Below are positions 3,316 through 29,165 of a DNA stretch of 64,000 nt, piece by piece. Location: the NCBI GenBank assembly GCA_021806645.1, contig JAJZQX010000006.1, positions 124,001 through 188,000 of the forward strand, given 5' to 3'. The position numbers were made by a program, and so were the translations under genes. The stretch is from Myxococcales bacterium (GTDB lineage Bacteria > Myxococcota > Myxococcia > Myxococcales > Anaeromyxobacteraceae). Under the pieces are notes generated by a model. That model was given only the letters and a program-made list of their open reading frames with translations, had not been told where the DNA came from and did no database searches. Position 1 is the first letter of the stretch; the number at the start of each line of letters is the position of its first letter.

Positions 3316-3331
3316 AGCAACCCACGTGCCA
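3316..3331 (-). promoter_or_regulatory. Sigma54 (-24/-12) promoter of gspC-gspD
   Basis: The minus strand reads TGGCACGTGGGTTGCT. This matches the sigma54 consensus TGGCACRNNNNTTGCW at every defined position. It lies 22 bases upstream of the gspC ATG, so transcription should start near 3305. Such promoters need an enhancer-binding activator, and one is encoded immediately upstream (3474-4892). Confidence 0.82.
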
Positions 3332-19214: not shown

Positions 19215-21278
19215 TCAGGCGGCCAGCTCGAGCCGCCCCACCGGCCGGATCGGCTGCTCGGGCGGTAGCTCGTCATAGGCCAGCACCTGCAGCCGCGGCC
19301 AGCGCGGCGCCACCAGCAGCCGGACCGCGCGCCGCACGTCGCCGCTCGCCAGCAGCACCGGGGTCCCGCCGGCGGCCTGCATGGCCCGCTCCAGCGCCTC
19401 GAGCAGCCGCGCCGCCTGTACCGGATCGAGCGCCGGCCACTCCCCGAGCAGCGACTCGCGGACGGTCTGCTCCGCGCCGGGGTCGAGCAGCACCGCGTGG
19501 AGCGCGTCGCCACCGCCGGCGCGATGGCCGATCTGGCGGCGAAGCGCCCGCCGCGCCGCGGCCGCCAGGAGCGCCGGGCCGCGGGCCCCTCCGCCGGCCT
19601 CCAGCAGCGCCTCGAGGATGGTTCGCAGCGGCCGGATCGAGACCCCCTCCTCGAGCAGCCGCCGCATGACCTCGGCCAGCAGGGCCGGCGCCACCTGGCG
19701 GGCCACCTCGCGCACCAGGGCCGGTGCCTGGGGCTCCAGGCGATCGAGCTGGGCCTGCGCCTCCTGCACGCCCAGCAGCAGGCCGGCGTTCCGCTCCAGC
19801 TCGGCGGCGCAGGCGGCGGCGACCCGCTCCAGGGGGCCGAGCACCGGCCCGAGCGCCGCGGCCCGCGTCGCGTCCCGCTCCGACACCACCGCCGCGCGCC
19901 GCCCGCTCGACGGCTCCAGCTCCGGCCGCAGCGCGATCCCGGCCAGGGCGAGGTCGTCGAGCGGGGCGAGCGAGAGCCGCTCGTCGAGCGAGACCCGGCC
20001 GCGCGCCGCCGGGACCTCGTCGACGAGCAGGGCCCAGTGACCGGGCCCGAGCGGCGCCTCGCGGACCAGGAGCGGCGGCGCGTCCACCCCCAGTTCGCGC
20101 CAGAGCCGCTCGCGCAGCGCCGGGACCAGCTCGCGAAGGAAGGCGTCGTCGCCGGCCCGGGCCAGCGCCAGCAGGTCGCCGGCCAGCTCCAGCACCACGG
20201 CGCCGGCTCCGTCGTCGCCACGCACGCCGTCGTCCGCGGCGGACGCGAGACCGTCCGCCGGGCGAAGGCACGCCGGCTCCGCCTCCCCGCGGCCGGCCCC
20301 CGCCACCCCGGCGCGCCGCAGCCCGCGCCACGCCAGCACCCCGGCGGCCGAGGCGACGAGGAAGAAGGGCGCCGCCGGCAGCCCCGGCGCCAGCGCGATG
20401 GCCCCGAGCAGCAGCGCCACCGCCGCCAGCGCCCTCGGCTCGCCGAAGAGCTGCCGCGCCACCTCGGTGCCGAGCCGCTCGCCGTCCTCGGCCGCGGCGA
20501 CGCGCGTCACCGCCACACCGGCCGCCACCGCCACCAGCAGCGCCGGAAGCTGCGAGGTGAGCCCATCGCCCACCGCCAGCAGCACCGCCCGCTCGGCGGC
20601 GGCGGCGAGCGGGCGGCCTCGCAGCGAGAGGGCGACGAGCCCGCCCACGGCGTTGACCAGCACGATGGCCACGCCGGCGATGGCGTCTCCCTTGACGAAC
20701 TTGAGCGCACCGTCCATGGCGCCGTAGAGCTGGCTCTCCCGCTCCAGCGCCCGGCGGCGCCGCGCCGCCCCGGCGGCGTCCACGAGGCCGGCCCGCAGGT
20801 CGGCGTCGATGGCCATCTGCTTGCCGGGGAGGGCGTCGAGCGTGAAGCGCGCCGCCACCTCGGCCACCCGCTCGGCCCCCTTGGCCACCACCAGCAGCTG
20901 GACCAGCGTGAGGATGGCGAAGACCACCGCCCCGGCCACCGGGCTCCCCTGGACCACCACCCGGCCGAAGGCCTCGATGACGCGCCCCGCTTCACCACGG
21001 GTCAGGACGAGGCGGGTCGAGGAGACCGAGAGCGCCAGCCGGAAGAGCGTGGTGAGGAGCAGCAGCGACGGGAAGGTGGCGAAGGCCAGCGCGTCGCGGG
21101 CCAGCAGCGTCACCACCAGCACGGTGGCGGCCAGCGCCAGCGAGAGGGCCAGGCCGGCGTCGAGCAGCGCGGGCGGCACCGGCGCCACCAGCAGCACCAC
21201 CAGCGCCAGGACCGCCAGCGCGAAGCCGGCGTCGCCGGCGCCGCGGAGGCTGGAGAGGAGGGCGTGAAGCCTTGTCAT
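19215..21278 (-). CDS. sctV: Type III secretion export gate protein SctV (FlhA homologue)
   Basis: Major inner-membrane export gate. 687 residues from the ATG at 21278, which overlaps the sctU stop by ATGA. The N-terminal half has about eight transmembrane helices and the FHIPEP-family signature RFTLDALPGKQMAIDADL with the following basic loop. The C-terminal half is the cytoplasmic ring domain (about 330-687) with the segment VLLASGDVRRAVRLLVAPRWPRLQVLAYDEL near the end, as in SctV/FlhA. Length is typical. It is the last gene of the operon. Composition is extremely GC-rich, like the other genes of this unit. Confidence 0.94.
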   Translation of the reverse strand: MTRLHALLSSLRGAGDAGFALAVLALVVLLVAPVPPALLDAGLALSLALAATVLVVTLLARDALAFATFPSLLLLTTLFRLALSVSSTRLVLTRGEAGRVIEAFGRVVVQGSPVAGAVVFAILTLVQLLVVAKGAERVAEVAARFTLDALPGKQMAIDADLRAGLVDAAGAARRRRALERESQLYGAMDGALKFVKGDAIAGVAIVLVNAVGGLVALSLRGRPLAAAAERAVLLAVGDGLTSQLPALLVAVAAGVAVTRVAAAEDGERLGTEVARQLFGEPRALAAVALLLGAIALAPGLPAAPFFLVASAAGVLAWRGLRRAGVAGAGRGEAEPACLRPADGLASAADDGVRGDDGAGAVVLELAGDLLALARAGDDAFLRELVPALRERLWRELGVDAPPLLVREAPLGPGHWALLVDEVPAARGRVSLDERLSLAPLDDLALAGIALRPELEPSSGRRAAVVSERDATRAAALGPVLGPLERVAAACAAELERNAGLLLGVQEAQAQLDRLEPQAPALVREVARQVAPALLAEVMRRLLEEGVSIRPLRTILEALLEAGGGARGPALLAAAARRALRRQIGHRAGGGDALHAVLLDPGAEQTVRESLLGEWPALDPVQAARLLEALERAMQAAGGTPVLLASGDVRRAVRLLVAPRWPRLQVLAYDELPPEQPIRPVGRLELAA

Positions 21279-22309
21279 GGGGTCTCCGGGCCTCGGGTGC
21301 CGTGCAGGTGAGCCAGCACCGCGGCGGCGGCGTCGTAGAGTTCCTCGGGGATCTCGTCGCCGACCTCGGCCAGCCGGTGGAGGGCCCGGGCCAGCGGCGG
21401 GTCGCGGACGATGGGGACACCGGCCCTGCGGGCCTGCGAGCGGAGCCGCGCCGCGGCCTCGCCGGTTCCCTTGGCCAGCACGCGCGGGGCCTGGCCCGAA
21501 CCGCGCTGGTGGTGGAGCGCCACCGCCACGTGGGTCGGGTTGACGACCAGGCAGGTGGCCCTGGCCACCGGGGCCGCCTCGGCGAGGGCGCGATGGACGC
21601 GCCTCCGCTCCGCCTTGTGGCGCGGATCGCCCTCCTCCTCCCTCGCCTCGCGCCGGAGCTCGTCGCGCGACATGCGCAGCTGCCGGCGGTGGCGCCAGCG
21701 GACCAGCAGCAGGTCGGCGCCGCCGAGCAGGAGCAGCACGCCGGCGAGGCGCCACGCCAGCGGCCAGAGCATGGCGGCCAGCGTGCCGCCGGGCGACCCG
21801 GCCCGGGGGAGCTGGGCCAGCGTCGCGGCGGTGGCGCGCCAGCCGTGGAGCACGACGGCCACCACCAGCGCCGCCTTGAGCAGCCCGAGCCCGAGGGCGG
21901 CCAGCCGGGCCGGCGAGAGGAGCCGGGCCAGGCCGCGAAAGGGATCGAGCCGCTCGAGCTTCGGCGCCAGCTGCGCCAGCGTGACGAGGCCGCCGGTCTG
22001 GAGCGCGCCGGCGGCGACCGCGGCGGCCAGGGCGGCCAGCGCCGGGAGGGCCGAGAGGCGCAGCACCGTCACCGCCGCCGAGAGGAGCGCGCCGCCCTGT
22101 GCGCGGTCGGCCCTGAGCGCGGCCAGCAGGCCGCCTCGGACCTCGCTGGCCAGCGCGCCGAACCACCACGGTCCGCAGGCGGCCAGCGCCGCCAGGCCGG
22201 CGAGCAGCGAGACCGCGCCGGTCAGCTCGCGCGAGACCGCCACCTCGCCGCGGCGGCGCGCCTCCGCCAGCCGCCGGGGCGTCGGCCGCTCGGTCCGCGA
22301 GCCGCTCAC
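21275..22309 (-). CDS. sctU: Type III secretion switch protein SctU (FlhB homologue)
   Basis: Controls substrate switching by self-cleavage. 344 residues: the N-terminal RTERPTPRRLAEARRRGEVAVSRE typical of SctU/FlhB, four transmembrane helices (about 30-205), then the cytoplasmic domain with the autocleavage motif NPTH (257-260). The intact NPTH and the following HVAVAL strand suggest a working switch. Starts with GTG overlapping the sctT stop; ends overlapping the sctV start. Confidence 0.94.
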   Translation of the reverse strand: MSGSRTERPTPRRLAEARRRGEVAVSRELTGAVSLLAGLAALAACGPWWFGALASEVRGGLLAALRADRAQGGALLSAAVTVLRLSALPALAALAAAVAAGALQTGGLVTLAQLAPKLERLDPFRGLARLLSPARLAALGLGLLKAALVVAVVLHGWRATAATLAQLPRAGSPGGTLAAMLWPLAWRLAGVLLLLGGADLLLVRWRHRRQLRMSRDELRREAREEEGDPRHKAERRRVHRALAEAAPVARATCLVVNPTHVAVALHHQRGSGQAPRVLAKGTGEAAARLRSQARRAGVPIVRDPPLARALHRLAEVGDEIPEELYDAAAAVLAHLHGTRGPETP

Positions 22310-23094
22310 GGCACGGACCCCGGCCGCGCCAGGCCGTGGAGCAACGTGGGGAGGTCCCCGGTCGAGGCCGCCAGCTCCACCAGCCTGCCCGCGCCGGCCG
22401 AGGCGGCCAGCGCCATGGCCAGCAGGCCGAGCGAGGCGCGCGCCGGCTGGGTCAGCGCCGGGAGGAGGAGACCCGGGGCGACTCGCAGCACGGCGGCGAC
22501 CGCGAGCTCCGCGGCGAGGACGCCGGCCACCGCCGGGCCCGCGACCGCGATCGCGCTGGCGAGCGCAGCCGCCGACGCCCGCAGCGCCAGCTCGGCCGCC
22601 GGCATGGCGGCGAACGGCGCGCCGGCCGGGATGGTGGCGAAGGAGAGCAGGAGGCCGCGCAGCACCAGCCGCAGCCCCCCGCCGACGGCCGCCAGCACGA
22701 TCAGCTGCTGAACCAGCAGGTCGCCGAGCGCCGTCTCGCGCTGGCGCAGCGGGGCGACGTGGAGCTCGGCCAGGGTGGCGCCCCGCGCCGTGTCGGCCAG
22801 CCGCCCGGCGGCGCGAGCCGCTTCGAGCGGGGCGGCCACCACCACCGCCAGCCCGGCGCCGAGCGCCAGCTCGCGCAGGCCCAGCACCGCCAGCGCCAGC
22901 CCCTCCGCCGGGATCGGCGGTGCGCCCCGGAGCAGCCAGGCCGCCGTCCCCAGCCCGAAGGCCAGCAGCAGCCGCAGCGGCGCCGGGACCAGCGGTCCGC
23001 CCAGGAACGGTGAGAGGACCGCCACCGGGACGAGCCGCAGCGCGTGGAGCAGTGGCGCGACCAGCACGGCGGCGTCGAGCGGAAGGGCGGTCAC
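22306..23094 (-). CDS. sctT: Type III secretion export apparatus protein SctT (FliR homologue)
   Basis: Component of the export gate with SctR and SctS. 262 residues starting at GTG 23094, which overlaps the sctS stop (GTGA); a longer open frame upstream runs through sctS and is not coding. At least six hydrophobic segments and a conserved-looking middle (LRELALGAGLAVVVAAPLEAARAAGRLAD) match the FliR/SctT family in length and pattern. Overlaps sctU downstream. Confidence 0.9.
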   Translation of the reverse strand: MTALPLDAAVLVAPLLHALRLVPVAVLSPFLGGPLVPAPLRLLLAFGLGTAAWLLRGAPPIPAEGLALAVLGLRELALGAGLAVVVAAPLEAARAAGRLADTARGATLAELHVAPLRQRETALGDLLVQQLIVLAAVGGGLRLVLRGLLLSFATIPAGAPFAAMPAAELALRASAAALASAIAVAGPAVAGVLAAELAVAAVLRVAPGLLLPALTQPARASLGLLAMALAASAGAGRLVELAASTGDLPTLLHGLARPGSVP

Positions 23095-23357
23095 GGGACC
23101 CCTCCGGCCGCCAGCGCCAGCACCTCGGCGGCGAAGCGAGCCAGGCGGCCGCCGATCCAGGGCCCGGTCACGATGAGCGCGGCGATCACCGCGGCGATGC
23201 GTGGGACGGCGCCGATGGCGTGCTCCTGCAGCTGCGTGGCGGCCTGGAGCAGCCCGGTGAGCAGCCCGACCAGCAGCGCGGCGCCGAGCGGCGGCGCCGA
23301 GAGGAGGAGCGCCAGCAGCAGCGCCTCGCGCCCGAGGTGGAGGACGGTGGCGGTCAT
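23091..23357 (-). CDS. sctS: Type III secretion export apparatus protein SctS (FliQ homologue)
   Basis: 88 residues with two hydrophobic helical hairpins (about 10-45 and 50-75), the normal size and build of SctS/FliQ: LLALLLSAPPLGAALLVGLLTGLLQAATQLQEHAI. The Q-L-Q-E-H run is characteristic. Its start overlaps the end of sctR (ATGA). Confidence 0.92.
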   Translation of the reverse strand: MTATVLHLGREALLLALLLSAPPLGAALLVGLLTGLLQAATQLQEHAIGAVPRIAAVIAALIVTGPWIGGRLARFAAEVLALAAGGVP

Positions 23358-24037
23358 GGCACGTGCTCCGGCGCATAGGCCAGCGCCAGGCCGCGCGCCA
23401 GGAGCCGCCAGCCGTCGACCGCCACCAGCAGCAGGAGCTTGAGGGGCAGCGAGACCGAGGTGGGCGAGAGCTGGGTCAGGCCGAGCGCCAGCAGCACGTT
23501 GGCGACCACCAGGTCCACCACCAGGAAGGGCAGGAAGACGAGGAAGCCGATGGTGAAGGCGCGGCGAAGCTCCGAGACCATGAAGGCCGGCGCCAGCACG
23601 GCCAGGTCGTCACCGCCCACCTCGCCTTCGGGGGCGCGCGGCCGGAGCCGGTGGGCCAGGTCGAGGAAGGCCTCGCGATCGTCGGGCCGGGCGAAGCGCG
23701 AGAGGAAGTCCTTCAACGGCACCAGGGCGCGAGCCCCGGCGGCCAGCCCGCCGGCGTCACCGCCCGGAGGGACGCTGCGCGCCGCGGCCCAGGCGGCCTC
23801 GCCAACCGGCGCCATCACCGCCAGCGTGAGGGCCAGGGCCAGGCCGGTGACGGCGGTGGTGGGGGGCACCTGCGGCGCGCCCAGCGCCGACCGGAGCACC
23901 GATAGGACCACCGAGATCTTGAGGAAGGAGGTGAGCGTGACCAGCAGGACCGGGACCAGCGCGGTGGCGCCGAGCAGGAGAAGCCAGTCGGCGGGGCGGG
24001 TCGCCAGCGGGCCGGGGGCCGGGAGCGCCGGGATCAC
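23354..24037 (-). CDS. sctR: Type III secretion export apparatus protein SctR (FliP homologue)
   Basis: 227 residues. Family hallmarks are the first membrane region with TSFLKISVVLSVLRSALGAPQVPP and the C-terminal region with FLPFLVVDLVVANVLLALGLTQLSPTSVSLPLKLLLLVAVDGW. Length is typical of SctR; unlike most FliP proteins there is no obvious cleaved signal peptide. Starts with GTG overlapping the stop of the FliO-like gene. Confidence 0.94.
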   Translation of the reverse strand: MIPALPAPGPLATRPADWLLLLGATALVPVLLVTLTSFLKISVVLSVLRSALGAPQVPPTTAVTGLALALTLAVMAPVGEAAWAAARSVPPGGDAGGLAAGARALVPLKDFLSRFARPDDREAFLDLAHRLRPRAPEGEVGGDDLAVLAPAFMVSELRRAFTIGFLVFLPFLVVDLVVANVLLALGLTQLSPTSVSLPLKLLLLVAVDGWRLLARGLALAYAPEHVP

Positions 24038-24378
24038 GGCTCCACCTCGGGCCCCGTCCAGCCGGTCTCGGCCAGCAACCGCACGCCGTCGCGCCCCACG
24101 CCGAGCAGCATGGGCCGGCCGTCCAGCTCCACCAGCACGGCCGAGGCGTCGCGGGCCAGCGCGGCCCGGGCCACCACGCGCAGCCGCGGCGGCGGCGCCG
24201 CGCCGGTCCGGCGGCGGACCAGCAGCGCGGCCGCCCCGAGTCCAAGCGTGCCCAGCCCGGCACGGGCGGCCACCGGGCCCGCCTCGCCGGGCAGGAGCGC
24301 CAGCGCCCCGCAGGCCAGCGCCCCCACGCCGGCGAGGGCCAGGGTCGCGCCACGAGGTCCGAACCCAGGGGGGTTCAC
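24034..24378 (-). CDS. FliO-like membrane protein in the type III secretion operon
   Basis: 114 residues. Two hydrophobic stretches (about 12-30 and 38-54) are followed by a basic RRR and a small beta-rich domain, RLRVVARAALARDASAVLVELDGRPMLLGVGRDGVRLLAE. This matches the FliO pattern of a membrane anchor followed by a short domain with lVelnGr.lLlGv..dgv.lL. It sits between sctQ and sctR with 4-base overlaps on both sides, exactly where fliO sits between fliN and fliP in flagellar operons. FliO stabilises the FliP complex in flagella and is normally absent from non-flagellar systems. The identification rests on pattern and position, not a search. Confidence 0.68.
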   Translation of the reverse strand: MNPPGFGPRGATLALAGVGALACGALALLPGEAGPVAARAGLGTLGLGAAALLVRRRTGAAPPPRLRVVARAALARDASAVLVELDGRPMLLGVGRDGVRLLAETGWTGPEVEP

Positions 24379-25358
24379 GGCTGCACCTCGAGCGAGAGCA
24401 CGCGCACGCCGACCGCGCCGTCGATCTCCACCAGCTCGCCGCGTCCGATTGGCCGCTCGCCCACTCGCAGCGTCACCAGCCCGCGCTTGTCGAGCTGGAC
24501 CGGCAGCGTGGCGCCCGGGGTGAGGCGGGAGAGATCGCTCAGCGTCAGCGGCACGCGCGCCAGCTCCACGTCCACCAGGATCGGCACCTGCGCCAGGGGA
24601 GTCTCCATCGAAGTCGCCTCCAGGAAGAAGGAACCGTCGGACACCGTGCCGGTGGCGGTGAAGCCGCCGGGGAAGACGAGGCGATGACGCCCCTCCAGCG
24701 GTGGATCGGCCAGCACCACGTCACCGGGAGCCAGCGCCCGCAGCTCACCGGGGAGGAGCGGCGCCGTACCGCCGCGGAGCGACGCGAAGAGCGGGAAGGC
24801 CAGCAGCGGCTCGGCCAGCTCGGGCGGGCCGGCCAGCGCCGCCACCGCGGCGGGCGGAAGGAGCAGCCGGGCCCGGCCGCGAACTCCCCCCGCGCTCAGC
24901 TCGAGGTCGACGGCCAGCGGCGAGTGGGGCGGCGGCGCGCCGCGAACGAGGCGCGGGGCCAGCCGCTCGGCGATCGGCTCGAGCTCGGAGGCGCCGTCGA
25001 TGGCCGCCAGCACCAGCAGCTCCAGCGCCGACTCCTCCAGCGGTGTCAGCGCCGCGGCCCCGACCACCGGCTCCCCGCCACCAGAGACCAGCGAGACCAG
25101 CCGGGCCACCAGCGCCGGCTCGACCTCCAGCAGCGCGGAGCCCGGGAGCGCGCCCAGCTCGATGGCCAGCTGGACCAGCGGCCGGGCCGGAGCGGCGGCG
25201 ACCGGGCGGGCGGAACCGACCAGCACGACCTCGACGCCGAGCACCTCGGCCATGGCCCGCGCGGCGACGGCGGCCGCCTCGGCACCGGTGGCACGGGCGC
25301 CACGGTCGAGAGCGGCAAAGCCTCGCGAGAGGGGCGGGAGGTCGAAGGGGAGCGCCAT
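24375..25358 (-). CDS. sctQ: Type III secretion C-ring protein SctQ
   Basis: Cytoplasmic sorting-platform component related to FliM/FliN. 327 residues from the ATG at 25358 (MALPFDLPPLSRGFAAL). The C-terminal third (about 255-327) is a SpoA domain, LTPGATLPVQLDKRGLVTLRVGERPIGRGELVEIDGAVGVRVLSL; a degenerate first SpoA-like domain probably lies at about 185-245. The N-terminal part resembles a FliM middle-type region only weakly. A longer open frame upstream lacks family support. It is 47 bases after the small upstream gene. Confidence 0.87.
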   Translation of the reverse strand: MALPFDLPPLSRGFAALDRGARATGAEAAAVAARAMAEVLGVEVVLVGSARPVAAAPARPLVQLAIELGALPGSALLEVEPALVARLVSLVSGGGEPVVGAAALTPLEESALELLVLAAIDGASELEPIAERLAPRLVRGAPPPHSPLAVDLELSAGGVRGRARLLLPPAAVAALAGPPELAEPLLAFPLFASLRGGTAPLLPGELRALAPGDVVLADPPLEGRHRLVFPGGFTATGTVSDGSFFLEATSMETPLAQVPILVDVELARVPLTLSDLSRLTPGATLPVQLDKRGLVTLRVGERPIGRGELVEIDGAVGVRVLSLEVQP

Positions 25359-25405
25359 GAAGCCGGAGGACTTCACGGGGCGTGCCGCCCCAAGCGACCG
25401 GGATC

Positions 25406-25729
25406 TCACGGACGCGGGCGCGACGAGCCGGTCGCGGCGCGGACCAGCGTCCGTTCCGCGACCGGTCGGCCCCGCCACTCGCGCTCGATCCGCCGGAGCA
25501 GCGGGTGGGAGGGGAGCGGGCCGGCGCGGGGCGCGGTCGCCGGTCCCTCGCACGGGAGCGATGACGCCAGCGCCGCCAGGCGGGCTCGCCGCGGCGCCGT
25601 GGCCAGCGCCTCGGCCAGCCGGACCGCCTCCTCACCACCGGGGTCGCCCAGCCGCCGGAGCAGCCGGGCCGACCGCGCCGGCGCCAGCGTCGCCGCCAGC
25701 GCCACCAGCCGTCGCAGCGCGCTCCTCAC
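25406..25729 (-). CDS. Small protein between SctJ and SctQ, possibly FliG-N or SctK-like
   Basis: 107 residues from a GTG at 25729 overlapping the sctJ stop (GTGA). Not confidently recognised. The first 60 residues, LRRLVALAATLAPARSARLLRRLGDPGGEEAVRLAEALA, follow the helical pattern of the FliG N-terminal domain (l..L....aa.lLr.l...e...la.ama). That is the part of FliG that binds the FliF ring. The tail is Pro/Arg-rich. The place directly after SctJ (FliF homologue) is where fliG lies in flagellar operons and where sctK or sctL lie in other type III systems. The coding status is supported by coupling and codon structure; the function is inference. Confidence 0.6.
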   Translation of the reverse strand: MRSALRRLVALAATLAPARSARLLRRLGDPGGEEAVRLAEALATAPRRARLAALASSLPCEGPATAPRAGPLPSHPLLRRIEREWRGRPVAERTLVRAATGSSRPRP

Positions 25730-26457
25730 GTCGCCTTCCCGGCGCTCCGCCACTCGCGCCACGCCAGCGCCCCCACGGCGCAGGCCGCCAGCGCCGACAG
25801 CCCGGCCAGCCACGGGGCGAGACGCCACGGCCTCGCGGCCGCCGCCGCCGGCACGGTCGCCGACGCCTCGGCGATCACCACCGCCACCGCCTCGGGCGCC
25901 AGCCCCTCGGCCGCGCCGGCCACCAGCGACCGCAGGCCCGGCTCCAGCTCGCGGAGCGACGCGCAGGCGGCCGGACGGCACTTGACCAGCACCGCCGCCC
26001 GCGGAGCGGGCCGGATCCCCGGGCGGAGGGGATCCTCCGCGGGCAGGCCCAGGTGGACTCGCGCCTCGACCACGCCGTCGAGCGCCTCGACGCTCCGGGC
26101 CAGCTCGCCGGAGAGAGCCAGGAGCCAGCGGGCCCGCTCCTCGACCGGGGTCGGGACCAGGCCGCCTTGCGCGAAGACATCCCCCAGCCCCTGAGGGCGC
26201 GCGCGCGGCAGCTGGCGGGCCGCCAGCAGGCGGTGGGCCTTGCCCCCCTCGCCGCGCCCGACGGAGACCGTCCAGGCCGCCTCGGTCCCCTCCTGTCGGG
26301 TCTTGGTGGCCGCCACGCCCTCCTCGTCCAGCGCCACCAGGACCTCGTTGGCCTGCCTCTCGCCCAGGTCGTGGAGCAACGGCTCGTCGCCGCAGCCGGC
26401 CAGCAGGGCGACGAGGGCGAGAGGGACGGTGACGCGAGTCGCAAGCAAGGTGCTCAC
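25726..26457 (-). CDS. sctJ: Type III secretion inner-ring lipoprotein SctJ
   Basis: Forms the inner-membrane ring. 243 residues from a GTG, with lipobox LAGC (Cys22), two ring-building domains (about 28-80, ANEVLVALDEEGVAATKTRQEG; about 100-190, LVPTPVEERARWLLALSGELARSVEALDGVVEARVHLGLP) and a C-terminal transmembrane helix (about 212-232). This is the standard SctJ/PrgK build rather than full-length FliF, so the system belongs to the non-flagellar type. It starts two bases after the sctI stop. Confidence 0.93.
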   Translation of the reverse strand: MSTLLATRVTVPLALVALLAGCGDEPLLHDLGERQANEVLVALDEEGVAATKTRQEGTEAAWTVSVGRGEGGKAHRLLAARQLPRARPQGLGDVFAQGGLVPTPVEERARWLLALSGELARSVEALDGVVEARVHLGLPAEDPLRPGIRPAPRAAVLVKCRPAACASLRELEPGLRSLVAGAAEGLAPEAVAVVIAEASATVPAAAAARPWRLAPWLAGLSALAACAVGALAWREWRSAGKAT

Positions 26458-26459
26458 CG

Positions 26460-26801
26460 CTAGACCTGCGCGTTGACCGCCTGCTTCACCGACTGCACGC
26501 CGTGCTCCACCAGCTTCGAGGCCACGTCGAGCGTCTGCGTGAACCGGTAGGCGTCGGACTGGAGCGCCAGCAGCTCACCCGCGGTGAAGGTCCGGCCTCC
26601 CCGAGCCGCCTGCAGGACGCGGTCGAGCCGGGCCTGCGAGGCCTCCAGCGAGCGCAAGGCCTGGGCCAGCTGCGCGGCGGGTCGGGGCGGCTCGGGTGGC
26701 GCCGAATGGGCGGCGAGCCGGGCCTCGAAGCGGGCGCCCGCGGCGGCTGGGGTGGGGCAGGGCGCGGCCACGGCGGCCGGCGCCACGGGGATGATGGGCA
26801 C
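26460..26801 (-). CDS. sctI: Type III secretion inner rod protein SctI
   Basis: 113 residues from a GTG at 26801 with GGAG six bases upstream. The C-terminal 45 residues, GRTFTAGELLALQSDAYRFTQTLDVASKLVEHGVQSVKQAVNAQV, match the rod-protein pattern (t..eLl.lQ......s..vdl.sKlve...qsvk..lnaQ). The N-terminal half is Ala/Pro-rich. It lies immediately before sctJ, the order seen in many type III systems. Confidence 0.85.
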   Translation of the reverse strand: MPIIPVAPAAVAAPCPTPAAAGARFEARLAAHSAPPEPPRPAAQLAQALRSLEASQARLDRVLQAARGGRTFTAGELLALQSDAYRFTQTLDVASKLVEHGVQSVKQAVNAQV

Positions 26802-26810
26802 GGGCGACTC

Positions 26811-27287
26811 CTAGTGGATGTTGCCGATGGCGGCGCGGGCGGTGTCGTGCTTCACGCGCATGACGTTGGAGAGGGTGGTGAACTCGCGGCTCTCCTGCTG
26901 CATCCGCTCCTGCAGCTGCAGGTACTGCAGGTTCATGGCCTGCGCCTCCTGCTGCATGGCGCGCGTGGCCTCCAGCAGGTCGCCCTGTGAACCGACGCCC
27001 CCGGTCGCGGTCGAGGTGGCGGCGCCGGCCGCGCTGGCGCCGGAGAGGCGGGCCCCGCCAACGCCGCCCACCATGCCGCCGTAGGGGGTGGCGCCGCCCT
27101 GGAGGCCGGCGCGCACCGCGCCGGCCAGGACGTTGCCGAAGGGGACGGCCGGGGCGGCCAGCTCGACGGCGCCGACTACGCCGGAGGCGAGCGCGCGGGT
27201 GGCCCCCTGCAGCGCCGCCTCGAAGCGGCCGGGGACGGTCTTGCGCTCGGTGGTGGGGGCGACGGTGATCGACTCGATTCGGCTCAT
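26811..27287 (-). CDS. Probable needle/rod-type or early secreted type III protein
   Basis: 158 residues from the ATG at 27287, preceded by GGAGGAGCC. The middle (about 50-100) is Gly/Ala-rich. The last 60 residues form long helices, EATRAMQQEAQAMNLQYLQLQERMQQESREFTTLSNVMRVKHDTARAAIGNIH. The end (sNvm..k.d.a.aaI.NI) resembles C-termini of needle and rod proteins, but the protein is about twice needle length. It is the first gene of the operon, so probably an early extracellular component or substrate. An upstream in-frame extension to 27422 lacks a ribosome site. No promoter was recognised in the 201 bases upstream. Confidence 0.68.
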   Translation of the reverse strand: MSRIESITVAPTTERKTVPGRFEAALQGATRALASGVVGAVELAAPAVPFGNVLAGAVRAGLQGGATPYGGMVGGVGGARLSGASAAGAATSTATGGVGSQGDLLEATRAMQQEAQAMNLQYLQLQERMQQESREFTTLSNVMRVKHDTARAAIGNIH

Positions 27288-27488
27288 GGTGGCTCCTCCG
27301 GGCCGGGGAGAGAGCAACCGGCGTGCCTCGGCAGGAGCCGCGGAATCACTCGGGAACGGCGCCCGGAGCGACGACGGGTATGGCCGCGGAAAGGCCCACC
27401 GGTCCGCGCCACGGACCAGCACGGCACGGGCGGGGCGGTGGTGGCGGACGCGCCAGCTCCTCCTGGACGCGGGGGTCGGCGGGTCGCC

Positions 27489-29165
27489 TCAGGGAATCGC
27501 CGGCGCCCCCTCGAAGCGCGGCTCGCTGGCCGCCTGGCGCAGGCCGGTCTTCCAGTCGATGGCCGCCGCCTGCGGATTGCCGAAGGGGCGGGCCAGGTAC
27601 CGGAGCTGGTGGCCGCGGGCCCGCAGCGCGCCGGCGGTGGCGGCGTCGAGGCCGAACGGCTCCACCGTCACCACGTCCGGCTGCCACTGGTGGTGGATGC
27701 GCGGCGCGCCGAGCGCCTGGTCGAGCGGCATGCCGTCGCCGTAGAGGTGCATGATCACCTGCGCCACGGTGGAGGGGATGGTCGAGCCGCCCGGCGCCCC
27801 CACCGCCAGCACCGCCCGCCCCTCGGCGTCGAAGACCAGCGTCGGCGCCATCGAGGAGAGCGGACGCTTCCCGGGCTCCACGCCGTTGACGCCGGTGCCG
27901 ACCAGCCCGAACTCGTTGGGGACGCCCGGCGCCGCGTCGAAGTCGTCCATCTGGTCGTTGAGCAGCAACCCGGTGCCTGGCACCACCACGCAGGCGCCGA
28001 ACCAGCCGTTGACAGTGGTGGTGAGGGCCACGGCGTTGCCGTCGGCGTCCACCACCGAGACCTGGGAGGTCTGGTCGCCGCCCCCGCCCCCCGGCGCCGG
28101 CGGCGCCAGCTCCGACGAGGGCGTGGCCCGCTCCCCGACCTCGGCCCGCACCCGCTTCGCGAAGGCGGTGCTCACCAGATCGGCGGCGGCGTCGCCGGCG
28201 GATGGGAGGAAGGCCGGATCGGCGAAGCGGCCGGCCCGCTGGGCGTAGAGCCGCTTCTCCACCTCGACGAAGGCGTGGAGCTGCGCCACCGGCCGGTAGC
28301 CTTGACCCGGCGTGAAGTCACCCTCGAGCGCCTGCAGCAGGCCGAGCACGATGGCGCCTCCGGCCGACGGCGGCGGGTAGGTGACGACGCGGTGGCCCCG
28401 GAAGCTCCCCGCCAGCGGCGTGCGCTCCACGGTCCGGTAGGCGGCGAGATCCGCGGCGGTCAGCAACCCGCCCCGGGCCCGGACCGCCGCCGCCACCTTC
28501 CCGGCCAGCGGGCCACGGTAGAACGCCTCGGGGTCGCGCCCCAGCAGCCGGAGGGTGCGGGCCAGGTCCGGGCGGCGGAGCAGGTCGCCGGGGCGCCGCG
28601 CCACCCGGGCGCCCGCGGGCCCTGCCGCCAGGAACTCGGCGGCGGCGGCCGGGTCGGCGCGCAGGCACTCGAGCCGGTCCTCGGCGGCCAGCGCGTGGTA
28701 CGGGCCGACCTGGAACCCCCGCTCGGCGAGCTTCGCGGCCGGCTCGGCCAGCCGGGCGAAGGGGAGCTTGCCGAAGCGGCGCGCCAGCTCGGCGTACCCC
28801 TTGACCGCGCCCGGCACCGCCACCGAGAGGCCGCCCTGCGTCGAGCGCTTCGGCTCGGGCTTGCCGCCGACCAGGAACATGTCGCGCGTCGCCGCCGCGG
28901 GGGCCACCTCTCGGAAGTCGAGCGCCACCAGCCGCCGCTCCCGGGCCAGCCAGACCAGCGCGAAGCCGCCGCCGCCGAGGCCGGAGCTCTCGCCCTGGAC
29001 CACCGAGAGGGCGAGCGCGGCCGCCACCGCCGCGTCCACGGCGTTGCCACCCGCGGCGAGTGCCTCGGCCCCGGCGGTGCTGGCCAGCGGGTGGGCGGTG
29101 GCGATGGCGCCGCGCGGCGAGGCGACGGTTCCGGAGAGGAGGAGGGCGAGCAGGCAGACGGTCAT
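27489..29165 (-). CDS. ggt: Gamma-glutamyltransferase
   Basis: Cleaves glutathione and other gamma-glutamyl compounds, usually in the periplasm, after self-processing. 558 residues with an N-terminal hydrophobic signal (MTVCLLALLLSGTVAS). Family motifs: HPLASTAGAEALAAGGNAVDAAVAAALALSVV at the start, the substrate region GLGGGGFALVW, and the autocleavage site with nucleophile T366 in DQTSQVSVVDADGNAVALTTTVN. The later SSMAPTLVFD and GAPGGSTIP motifs are also present. The catalytic set looks complete. The gene is transcribed away from the plsC-like gene. Confidence 0.93.
   Translation of the reverse strand: MTVCLLALLLSGTVASPRGAIATAHPLASTAGAEALAAGGNAVDAAVAAALALSVVQGESSGLGGGGFALVWLARERRLVALDFREVAPAAATRDMFLVGGKPEPKRSTQGGLSVAVPGAVKGYAELARRFGKLPFARLAEPAAKLAERGFQVGPYHALAAEDRLECLRADPAAAAEFLAAGPAGARVARRPGDLLRRPDLARTLRLLGRDPEAFYRGPLAGKVAAAVRARGGLLTAADLAAYRTVERTPLAGSFRGHRVVTYPPPSAGGAIVLGLLQALEGDFTPGQGYRPVAQLHAFVEVEKRLYAQRAGRFADPAFLPSAGDAAADLVSTAFAKRVRAEVGERATPSSELAPPAPGGGGGDQTSQVSVVDADGNAVALTTTVNGWFGACVVVPGTGLLLNDQMDDFDAAPGVPNEFGLVGTGVNGVEPGKRPLSSMAPTLVFDAEGRAVLAVGAPGGSTIPSTVAQVIMHLYGDGMPLDQALGAPRIHHQWQPDVVTVEPFGLDAATAGALRARGHQLRYLARPFGNPQAAAIDWKTGLRQAASEPRFEGAPAIP

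What the first reader, a model, noticed from the sequence alone, without database searches (positions are those of the whole stretch)
19215..27287. Minimal non-flagellar type III secretion operon with flagellar-like gene order
Eleven tightly packed genes encode needle/rod-like protein, SctI, SctJ, a small protein, SctQ, a FliO-like protein, then SctR-S-T-U-V. The stretch Q-O-R-S-T-U-V is the same order as fliM/N-fliO-P-Q-R-flhB-flhA, and seven junctions are 4-base overlaps. No SctN ATPase, SctL, SctD, SctC secretin, SctO or SctP lies here, and both flanks are unrelated genes. Deep-branching, secretin-lacking type III systems have been described in Myxococcales; this may be such a form retaining ancestral flagellar traits.
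Basis: partly seen in the sequence, partly recalled or inferred. Interest (0 to 1): 0.75.

Follow-up and report, generated by a model that had tools for sequence, protein, structure and literature searches.

The report
Myxobacterial type III export operon
The operon is the "short" protein-export system that related soil bacteria are already known to carry; its ATPase genes turn out to lie elsewhere on the chromosome, and its first gene looks like the needle subunit that these systems were said to have lost.

Summary
Eleven co-directional genes (27287-19215, minus strand) encode P1, SctI, SctJ, a 107-aa protein, SctQ, FliO, SctR, S, T, U and V, with seven 4-base overlaps. It is the known secretin-lacking "Myxo short" non-flagellar T3SS (Abby & Rocha 2012), syntenic across its family, in Myxococcaceae including M. 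xanthus, and in another order. It is not minimal: sctL-sctN-sctO sit elsewhere in the genome beside rpoB-rpoC, conserved in all six genera sampled. The genome has one FlhA/SctV, no flagellum, no detectable SctD, and two secretins (GspD, PilQ).

New or sharper: (1) P1 belongs to the T3SS needle superfamily: its profile picks the annotated SctF of Nitratidesulfovibrio out of 4,197 unrelated frames. P1 occurs in the short loci and in the "long" T3SS* called needleless. (2) The 107-aa protein is probably a FliG-N/SctK-like remnant. (3) P1 has a conserved sigma-54-type promoter. FliO in Myxococcota T3SSs was reported in 2025.

Likely function (inferred): export of P1 and SctI across the inner membrane to build a short rod or filament inside the SctJ ring. 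P1's C-terminal helix also occurs on Sec-exported proteins in genomes without T3SS, which is unexplained.

The parts
26811..27287 (-). P1, 158 aa: needle/pilin-like (SctF-superfamily) protein with a disordered N-terminus and a 57-residue C-terminal helix
26460..26801 (-). sctI, inner rod protein, 113 aa
   Evidence: T3SS_basalb_I 0.01; conserved family between P1 and sctJ
25726..26457 (-). sctJ, inner-ring lipoprotein, 243 aa
   Evidence: TIGR02544 1.7e-43; lipobox LLAGC and C-terminal hydrophobic segment
25406..25729 (-). orf107: probable FliG-N/SctK-like adaptor in the fliG position after sctJ/fliF
24375..25358 (-). sctQ, cytoplasmic ring protein, 327 aa
   Evidence: TIGR02551 1.1e-23, FliMN_C 8.7e-17
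24034..24378 (-). fliO-like gene, 114 aa
   Evidence: PF04347 2.8e-8; all 12 family members hit FliO
23354..24037 (-). sctR
   Evidence: PF00813 1.5e-59; PRK12797 1.4e-69
23091..23357 (-). sctS
   Evidence: PF01313 2e-24
22306..23094 (-). sctT
   Evidence: PF01311 9.4e-25; TIGR01401 7e-24
21275..22309 (-). sctU with NPTH autocleavage motif
   Evidence: TIGR01404 1.2e-76; NPTH at residue 257
19215..21278 (-). sctV, the only FlhA/SctV in the genome
   Evidence: PF00771 2.4e-177; TIGR01399 5.5e-172; single genome hit
27313..27327 (-). sigma-54-type -24/-12 promoter element GGCACGCCGGTTGCT upstream of P1
   Evidence: conserved in position and sequence across the family; 10 copies in 4.14 Mb, 0 for the reversed control; RpoN present
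25372..25387 (-). conserved GGCACG-N4-GTGAA element upstream of sctQ, possible second (degenerate) sigma-54-type promoter
   Evidence: the -12 half departs from consensus, so a weak call

Best explanation
It is the Myxococcia 'short' non-flagellar type III export system. Shown here: a complete inner-membrane export gate (SctRSTUV plus the assembly chaperone FliO), an inner ring lipoprotein (SctJ), a cytoplasmic ring (SctQ), a probable FliG-N/SctK-like adaptor (orf107), a rod protein (SctI), a needle-superfamily protein (P1), and a detached sctL-sctN-sctO ATPase module beside rpoB-rpoC. Inferred: under a sigma-54 promoter and its enhancer-binding protein, the gate, driven by proton motive force and SctN, exports SctI and then P1, which polymerises on the SctI rod inside the SctJ ring as a short periplasmic rod or filament. 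With no secretin and no detectable SctD, it either stays periplasmic or meets the outer envelope through another system (T2SS or T4P). FliO and the FliG-like adaptor are traits kept from the flagellar ancestor.
For: Gene identities. One SctN and one SctV in a 99% complete genome, so the two loci belong to one machine. The sctL-N-O module follows rpoC and a sigma factor in all six genera of the family sampled. Synteny with the M. xanthus/Myxococcaceae short locus. SctV tree. P1 as needle kin: of 24,736 Pfam models, the families most often hit by its members are T3SS ones (HrpF, T3SS_needle_F, HrpA_pilin). A P1 profile finds the annotated Nitratidesulfovibrio SctF as the only significant one of 4,197 ORFs (E 3.8e-5; best of 5,000 shuffles 12.4 bits against 23.1). 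Profile-profile 98.6% against PF09392-positive Myxococcota proteins, column-shuffled controls at most 1.8%. P1 sits directly before sctI-sctJ, the usual sctF place, and accompanies the short locus across the class. orf107: profile P 2e-4 against the long-locus FliG relative while 13 other families give P at least 0.2. FliG proteins rank 1 and 6 of 4,197 ORFs. FliF-FliG complexes rank 1 and 2, and full-length FliG 6, in Foldseek, though with non-significant E. Sigma-54 element.
Against: No experiment. P1 does not match any solved needle structure by sequence and has no helix-loop-helix hairpin in its model. Its C-terminal helix also occurs on Sec-exported proteins in genomes without any FlhA/SctV, so the helix alone does not prove a T3SS needle. 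P1 could be another export substrate. No SctD and no exit through the outer membrane were found. The only function data found are for M. xanthus: its short system was reported not to be involved in prey killing (PMC12403147).
Confidence: 0.6

Rival explanations
1. It is a degenerate relic of an injectisome, losing genes and function.
For: Secretin and SctD are missing; M. xanthus loci were once annotated as relics (reported in PMC3459982).
Against: All genes are open, overlap tightly, and are conserved in order across families and in another order of the class. The detached sctLNO module, FliO and the promoter are conserved too.
Confidence: 0.07
2. P1 is not a structural needle but a soluble substrate; the system is a substrate-delivery pump that hands P1 to the periplasm or to another exit such as T2SS or T4P.
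For: P1 has a 100-residue disordered N-terminus of variable length. Its helix occurs on Sec-exported proteins elsewhere. Several longer needle-like proteins occur in some Myxococcota genomes, some of them beside the long locus.
Against: P1 sits in the sctF position before sctI-sctJ, is a single copy per locus, and is as conserved as the rod protein.
Confidence: 0.25
3. The gate serves another envelope job (for example membrane-protein insertion or tubule formation) and exports nothing.
For: FlhA-type gates have been tied to non-secretory structures (abstract of PMC9380563).
Against: Export-specific parts are kept: SctI, P1, SctU with its NPTH switch, and the SctLNO ATPase.
Confidence: 0.05

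Closest known systems
Myxo 'short' non-flagellar T3SS (Abby & Rocha 2012, PMC3459982), incl. the M. xanthus short locus
   Same: Gene content, gene order, neighbouring HU and yihY genes, no secretin, basal place among NF-T3SSs. They report the short locus in all sequenced Cystobacterineae, Anaeromyxobacter among them.
   Different: They state that SctF and FliG are absent; here a needle-superfamily gene heads the operon and a probable FliG-N-like gene follows sctJ. The ATPase module is unlinked here; their text lists the ATPase among the core genes.
Myxo 'long' NF-T3SS / M. xanthus 'needleless' T3SS* (PMC12075869)
   Same: Export gate, FliO, SctI, SctJ, SctQ, SctL, SctN, and a P1 paralogue before sctI.
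   Different: Long locus with SctL-N-O on site and a full FliG relative. Its SctV groups with secretin-bearing systems. It acts in prey lysis; the short system was reported not to act in prey killing.
Flagellar fliF-fliG ... fliMN-fliO-P-Q-R-flhB-flhA cluster
   Same: Order Q-O-R-S-T-U-V and a probable FliG-like gene after the FliF homologue.
   Different: No rod, hook or filament genes and no full-length FliG; SctV falls on the non-flagellar side of the tree.
Canonical injectisomes (Ysc, Hrp, Desulfovibrio)
   Same: SctF-like, SctI, SctJ, SctL, SctN, SctQ, SctRSTUV.
   Different: No SctC secretin, no detectable SctD, no translocon genes at either locus; FliO present.

Membership tests
Myxo short NF-T3SS | SctV on the non-flagellar side, in a clade with Myxococcaceae short loci | tested here: met
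   clade of 15 short loci with 99% SH-aLRT; quick tree, few outgroups
Myxo short NF-T3SS | conserved locus order and neighbourhood | tested here: met
   same order, HU and yihY next to sctV, in Anaeromyxobacteraceae, Myxococcaceae and (order and HU gene) a second order
Myxo short NF-T3SS | no T3SS secretin in the genome | tested here: met
   only GspD (508 bits, cut-off 351) and PilQ (447 bits, cut-off 284)
Myxo short NF-T3SS | no SctD | tested here: met
   best TIGR02500 match E 0.014, 15 bits, cut-off 86; a highly diverged SctD is not excluded
Myxo short NF-T3SS | ATPase present | tested here: met
   one SctN, unlinked, in sctL-sctN-sctO beside rpoBC
Myxo short NF-T3SS | absence of SctF needle (as published) | tested here: not met
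   P1 is SctF-superfamily. All short loci read have P1, so this reads as a correction of the published description, not as exclusion from the family
SctF/HrpA needle or pilin family | sequence homology of the C-terminal helix to known needles | tested here: met
   (E 3.8e-5 to an annotated SctF); below Pfam cut-offs for single members
SctF/HrpA needle or pilin family | match to solved needle structures | tested here: not met
   no needle chain up to E 10 by sequence; no Foldseek match of the low-confidence model. I therefore say needle-superfamily, not SctF proper
SctF/HrpA needle or pilin family | export by the T3SS and polymerisation | not testable with these tools
   needs the bench
FliG/SctK | orf107 homologous to the FliG N-terminal domain | tested here: inconclusive
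   consistent ranking of FliG as nearest kin, but no single significant E-value
Flagellar T3SS | flagellar FlhA or FliG genes in the genome | tested here: not met
   one FHIPEP, which is SctV; no FliG_C above cut-off
Hrp or Ysc injectisome | SctV nested within these families | tested here: not met
   for Hrp-type and Desulfovibrio; Ysc not sampled

The most novel reading that the evidence does not exclude
The Myxococcota 'needleless' type III systems are not needleless. Both the short and the long loci encode a conserved SctF-superfamily subunit (P1) before sctI-sctJ, and a FliG-type adaptor, so the ancestral non-flagellar T3SS kept a needle or filament and a FliG-based ring and simply had no secretin. 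P1 would form a secretin-independent periplasmic or envelope-spanning filament.
Probability: 0.5. Interest if true: 0.72.

Novelty: new member of a known kind. Interest (0 to 1): 0.52.

Why it matters
The Myxo systems are the key witness in the argument that injectisomes came from flagella. That argument says the needle was lost and FliG was absent in them. A conserved needle-superfamily gene in both loci and a FliG relative would change the reconstruction and give a protein that can be tagged and imaged in M. xanthus, where the long system takes part in prey lysis. The detached sctLNO module also raises the question of which ATPase serves the Myxococcaceae short system, whose sampled genomes have one close SctN, at the long locus.

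Tried and rejected
A flagellum in this genome: rejected. SctD by TIGR02500: nothing. P1 or SctI against PDB sequences: chance hits only. Pfam on orf107 and its short-locus relatives: no FliG match. Fold search of P1: empty. Sec-exported carriers of the P1 helix do not match any T3SS family in Pfam. The hit L159 (Cupriavidus) was first taken as NF-T3SS, but its FlhA falls with flagella. Shuffle control for orf107: 60 column shuffles were started; at least two runs failed with a format error and the rest gave prob at most 0.2. The needle-like set used was picked from PF09392 hits with a C-terminal motif filter, so it is partly circular; one search is the independent test.
Full report
OBSERVATION. 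The minus strand of 19215-27287 holds eleven co-directional genes: P1 (158 aa), sctI, sctJ, orf107, sctQ, fliO, sctR, sctS, sctT, sctU, sctV. Seven junctions are 4-base overlaps. SctU has the NPTH motif and SctJ a lipobox. Upstream lies a gamma-glutamyltransferase-like gene (27489-29165); downstream, after 70 bp, a convergent HU/IHF gene.

WHOLE GENOME. The window lies in a 4.14 Mb, 33-contig assembly, 99% complete. It has exactly one FHIPEP gene, the SctV of this operon, so there is no flagellum. FliG_C gives nothing above cut-off. One SctN-type ATPase exists, at C29:178741-180036, in sctL (FliH/SctL family), sctN (TIGR02546 580 bits) and a FliJ/SctO-like gene, directly after rpoB, rpoC and a sigma factor. 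The same rpoC-sigma-sctL-sctN arrangement is kept in every genus of the family that I read. The system is therefore split over two loci, not minimal. Only two secretins exist, GspD (at the start of this window) and PilQ. No SctD was found. In Myxococcaceae genomes checked (G086, G100, G003, G112) the only close SctN sits within 14 kb of the long-locus sctV, so their short locus must share it or do without.

DISTRIBUTION AND KIN. Relatives come from the same genus, family, order and a second order of the class. The operon keeps its order and its HU and yihY neighbours in Anaeromyxobacteraceae and Myxococcaceae, and P1-I-J-x-Q-O-R-S-T-U-V beside an HU gene also in a second order. Named genomes include Anaeromyxobacter oryzisoli, A. 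terrae, A. soli, A. oryzae and Myxococcus xanthus. A quick tree of SctV puts the window in the short clade with M. xanthus; the long Myxo loci group with secretin-bearing Desulfovibrio and Hrp-type systems (96% SH-aLRT); all these are separated from flagella (99%). L134 is a long branch and the outgroups are few, so the relative order of short and long should be read with care. This is the "short" Myxo system of Abby & Rocha (PMC3459982). FliO in Myxococcota non-flagellar T3SSs, both M. xanthus systems included, was reported in 2025 (PMC12403147).

P1 IS NEEDLE KIN. P1 is found in 122 of 147 genomes of the class. The better-assembled genomes without P1 that I can cross-check have no non-flagellar SctV. 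A paralogue stands before sctI-sctJ at the long locus. Single members score below Pfam cut-offs, but the families hit most often are HrpF, T3SS_needle_F and HrpA_pilin. Arg_decarb_HB, a helical family, also appears, which shows the background level. The needle model PF09392 run over genomes finds long-locus P1 directly (E down to 0.0012), and finds other Myxococcota proteins above its cut-off that share the P1 motif SN-(I/V)-M-K-x-x-H-D. The P1 C-terminal profile aligns with these at 98.6%. The independent test is: against 4,197 six-frame ORFs of ten plasmid T3SS and flagellar regions, the only significant hit is the ORF annotated as needle major subunit in Nitratidesulfovibrio vulgaris (E 3.8e-5; next 0.033), and no shuffle of that needle among 5,000 exceeds 12.4 bits against 23.1. 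The AlphaFold model has a disordered N-terminus and one confident helix, residues 101-157. Abby & Rocha wrote that SctF was lost in Myxo systems; PMC12075869 calls the long system needleless. I found no held paper that names a needle in these systems.

ORF107. It lies where fliG follows fliF. Its family profile is nearest to a long-locus protein that Pfam recognises as FliG (FliG_C 3e-9): P 2e-4 against P of at least 0.2 for 13 other families. In the blind ORF scan two annotated FliG proteins rank 1 and 6. In Foldseek the first two hits of its model are FliF-FliG complexes and the sixth is full-length FliG, all with non-significant E. I conclude "probable". Abby & Rocha state that FliG is absent from Myxo systems.

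PROMOTER. GGCACG-N4-TTGCT, the sigma-54 -24/-12 form, lies 40-45 bp before the P1 start in all Anaeromyxobacteraceae read, some with a weaker -12 half. Only ten exact copies occur in the genome and none of the reversed pattern. RpoN is present. Myxococcaceae have TGGCACG-N4-CTGAA or a similar form at a like distance, which departs from the -12 consensus.

MECHANISM. Shown: parts, linkage, conservation, homology. Inferred: gate export of SctI and P1, polymerisation inside the SctJ ring, periplasmic or envelope end point, sigma-54 control. Unknown: cargo beyond P1, exit through the outer membrane, phenotype.

PUZZLE. The P1 C-terminal helix is also the C-terminal domain of small proteins with apparent Sec signal peptides in Chitinophagaceae, Terriglobia, Geothrix, Chlorobiaceae, Hyphomonadaceae and Eremiobacterota. 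Five of these genomes (two Chitinophagaceae, one each of Geothrix, Terriglobia and Chlorobiaceae) have no FHIPEP at all (some are incomplete drafts). Either the helix is a general assembly module or it was borrowed from a T3SS needle.

Noticed in passing
L237, L247, L253, L240, L266, L261, L233 (P1-like ORF at about 10000; L266 at about 6700): The P1 C-terminal helix occurs on stand-alone proteins with apparent Sec signal peptides in bacteria of several other phyla, some of whose genomes have no FlhA/SctV at all.
   Followed up: partly
L138:11201-12574 (-): A FliG relative (FliG_C 3e-9) sits between sctJ and sctL in the long Myxococcota T3SS locus, although FliG was reported absent from these systems.
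   Followed up: partly
L124:4696-4920 (+) and L124:7090-7314 (+): Two identical 74-aa needle-sized ORFs with a needle-like C-terminus lie opposite to the long-locus operon in the genome nearest M. xanthus.
   Followed up: no
L160, L163 and G110 contigs C4, C8, C14, C459: Several Myxococcota genomes carry multiple 230-330-aa proteins ending in a needle-like helix, some in tandem and some beside the long locus: possible substrates or filament variants.
   Followed up: no
window 3316-3330 (-): A second exact sigma-54-type element lies just before the gspC gene of the type II secretion cluster.
   Followed up: no
L264, L265: Thorarchaeota MAG contigs carry a P1-like C-terminal helix; contamination is possible.
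   Followed up: no
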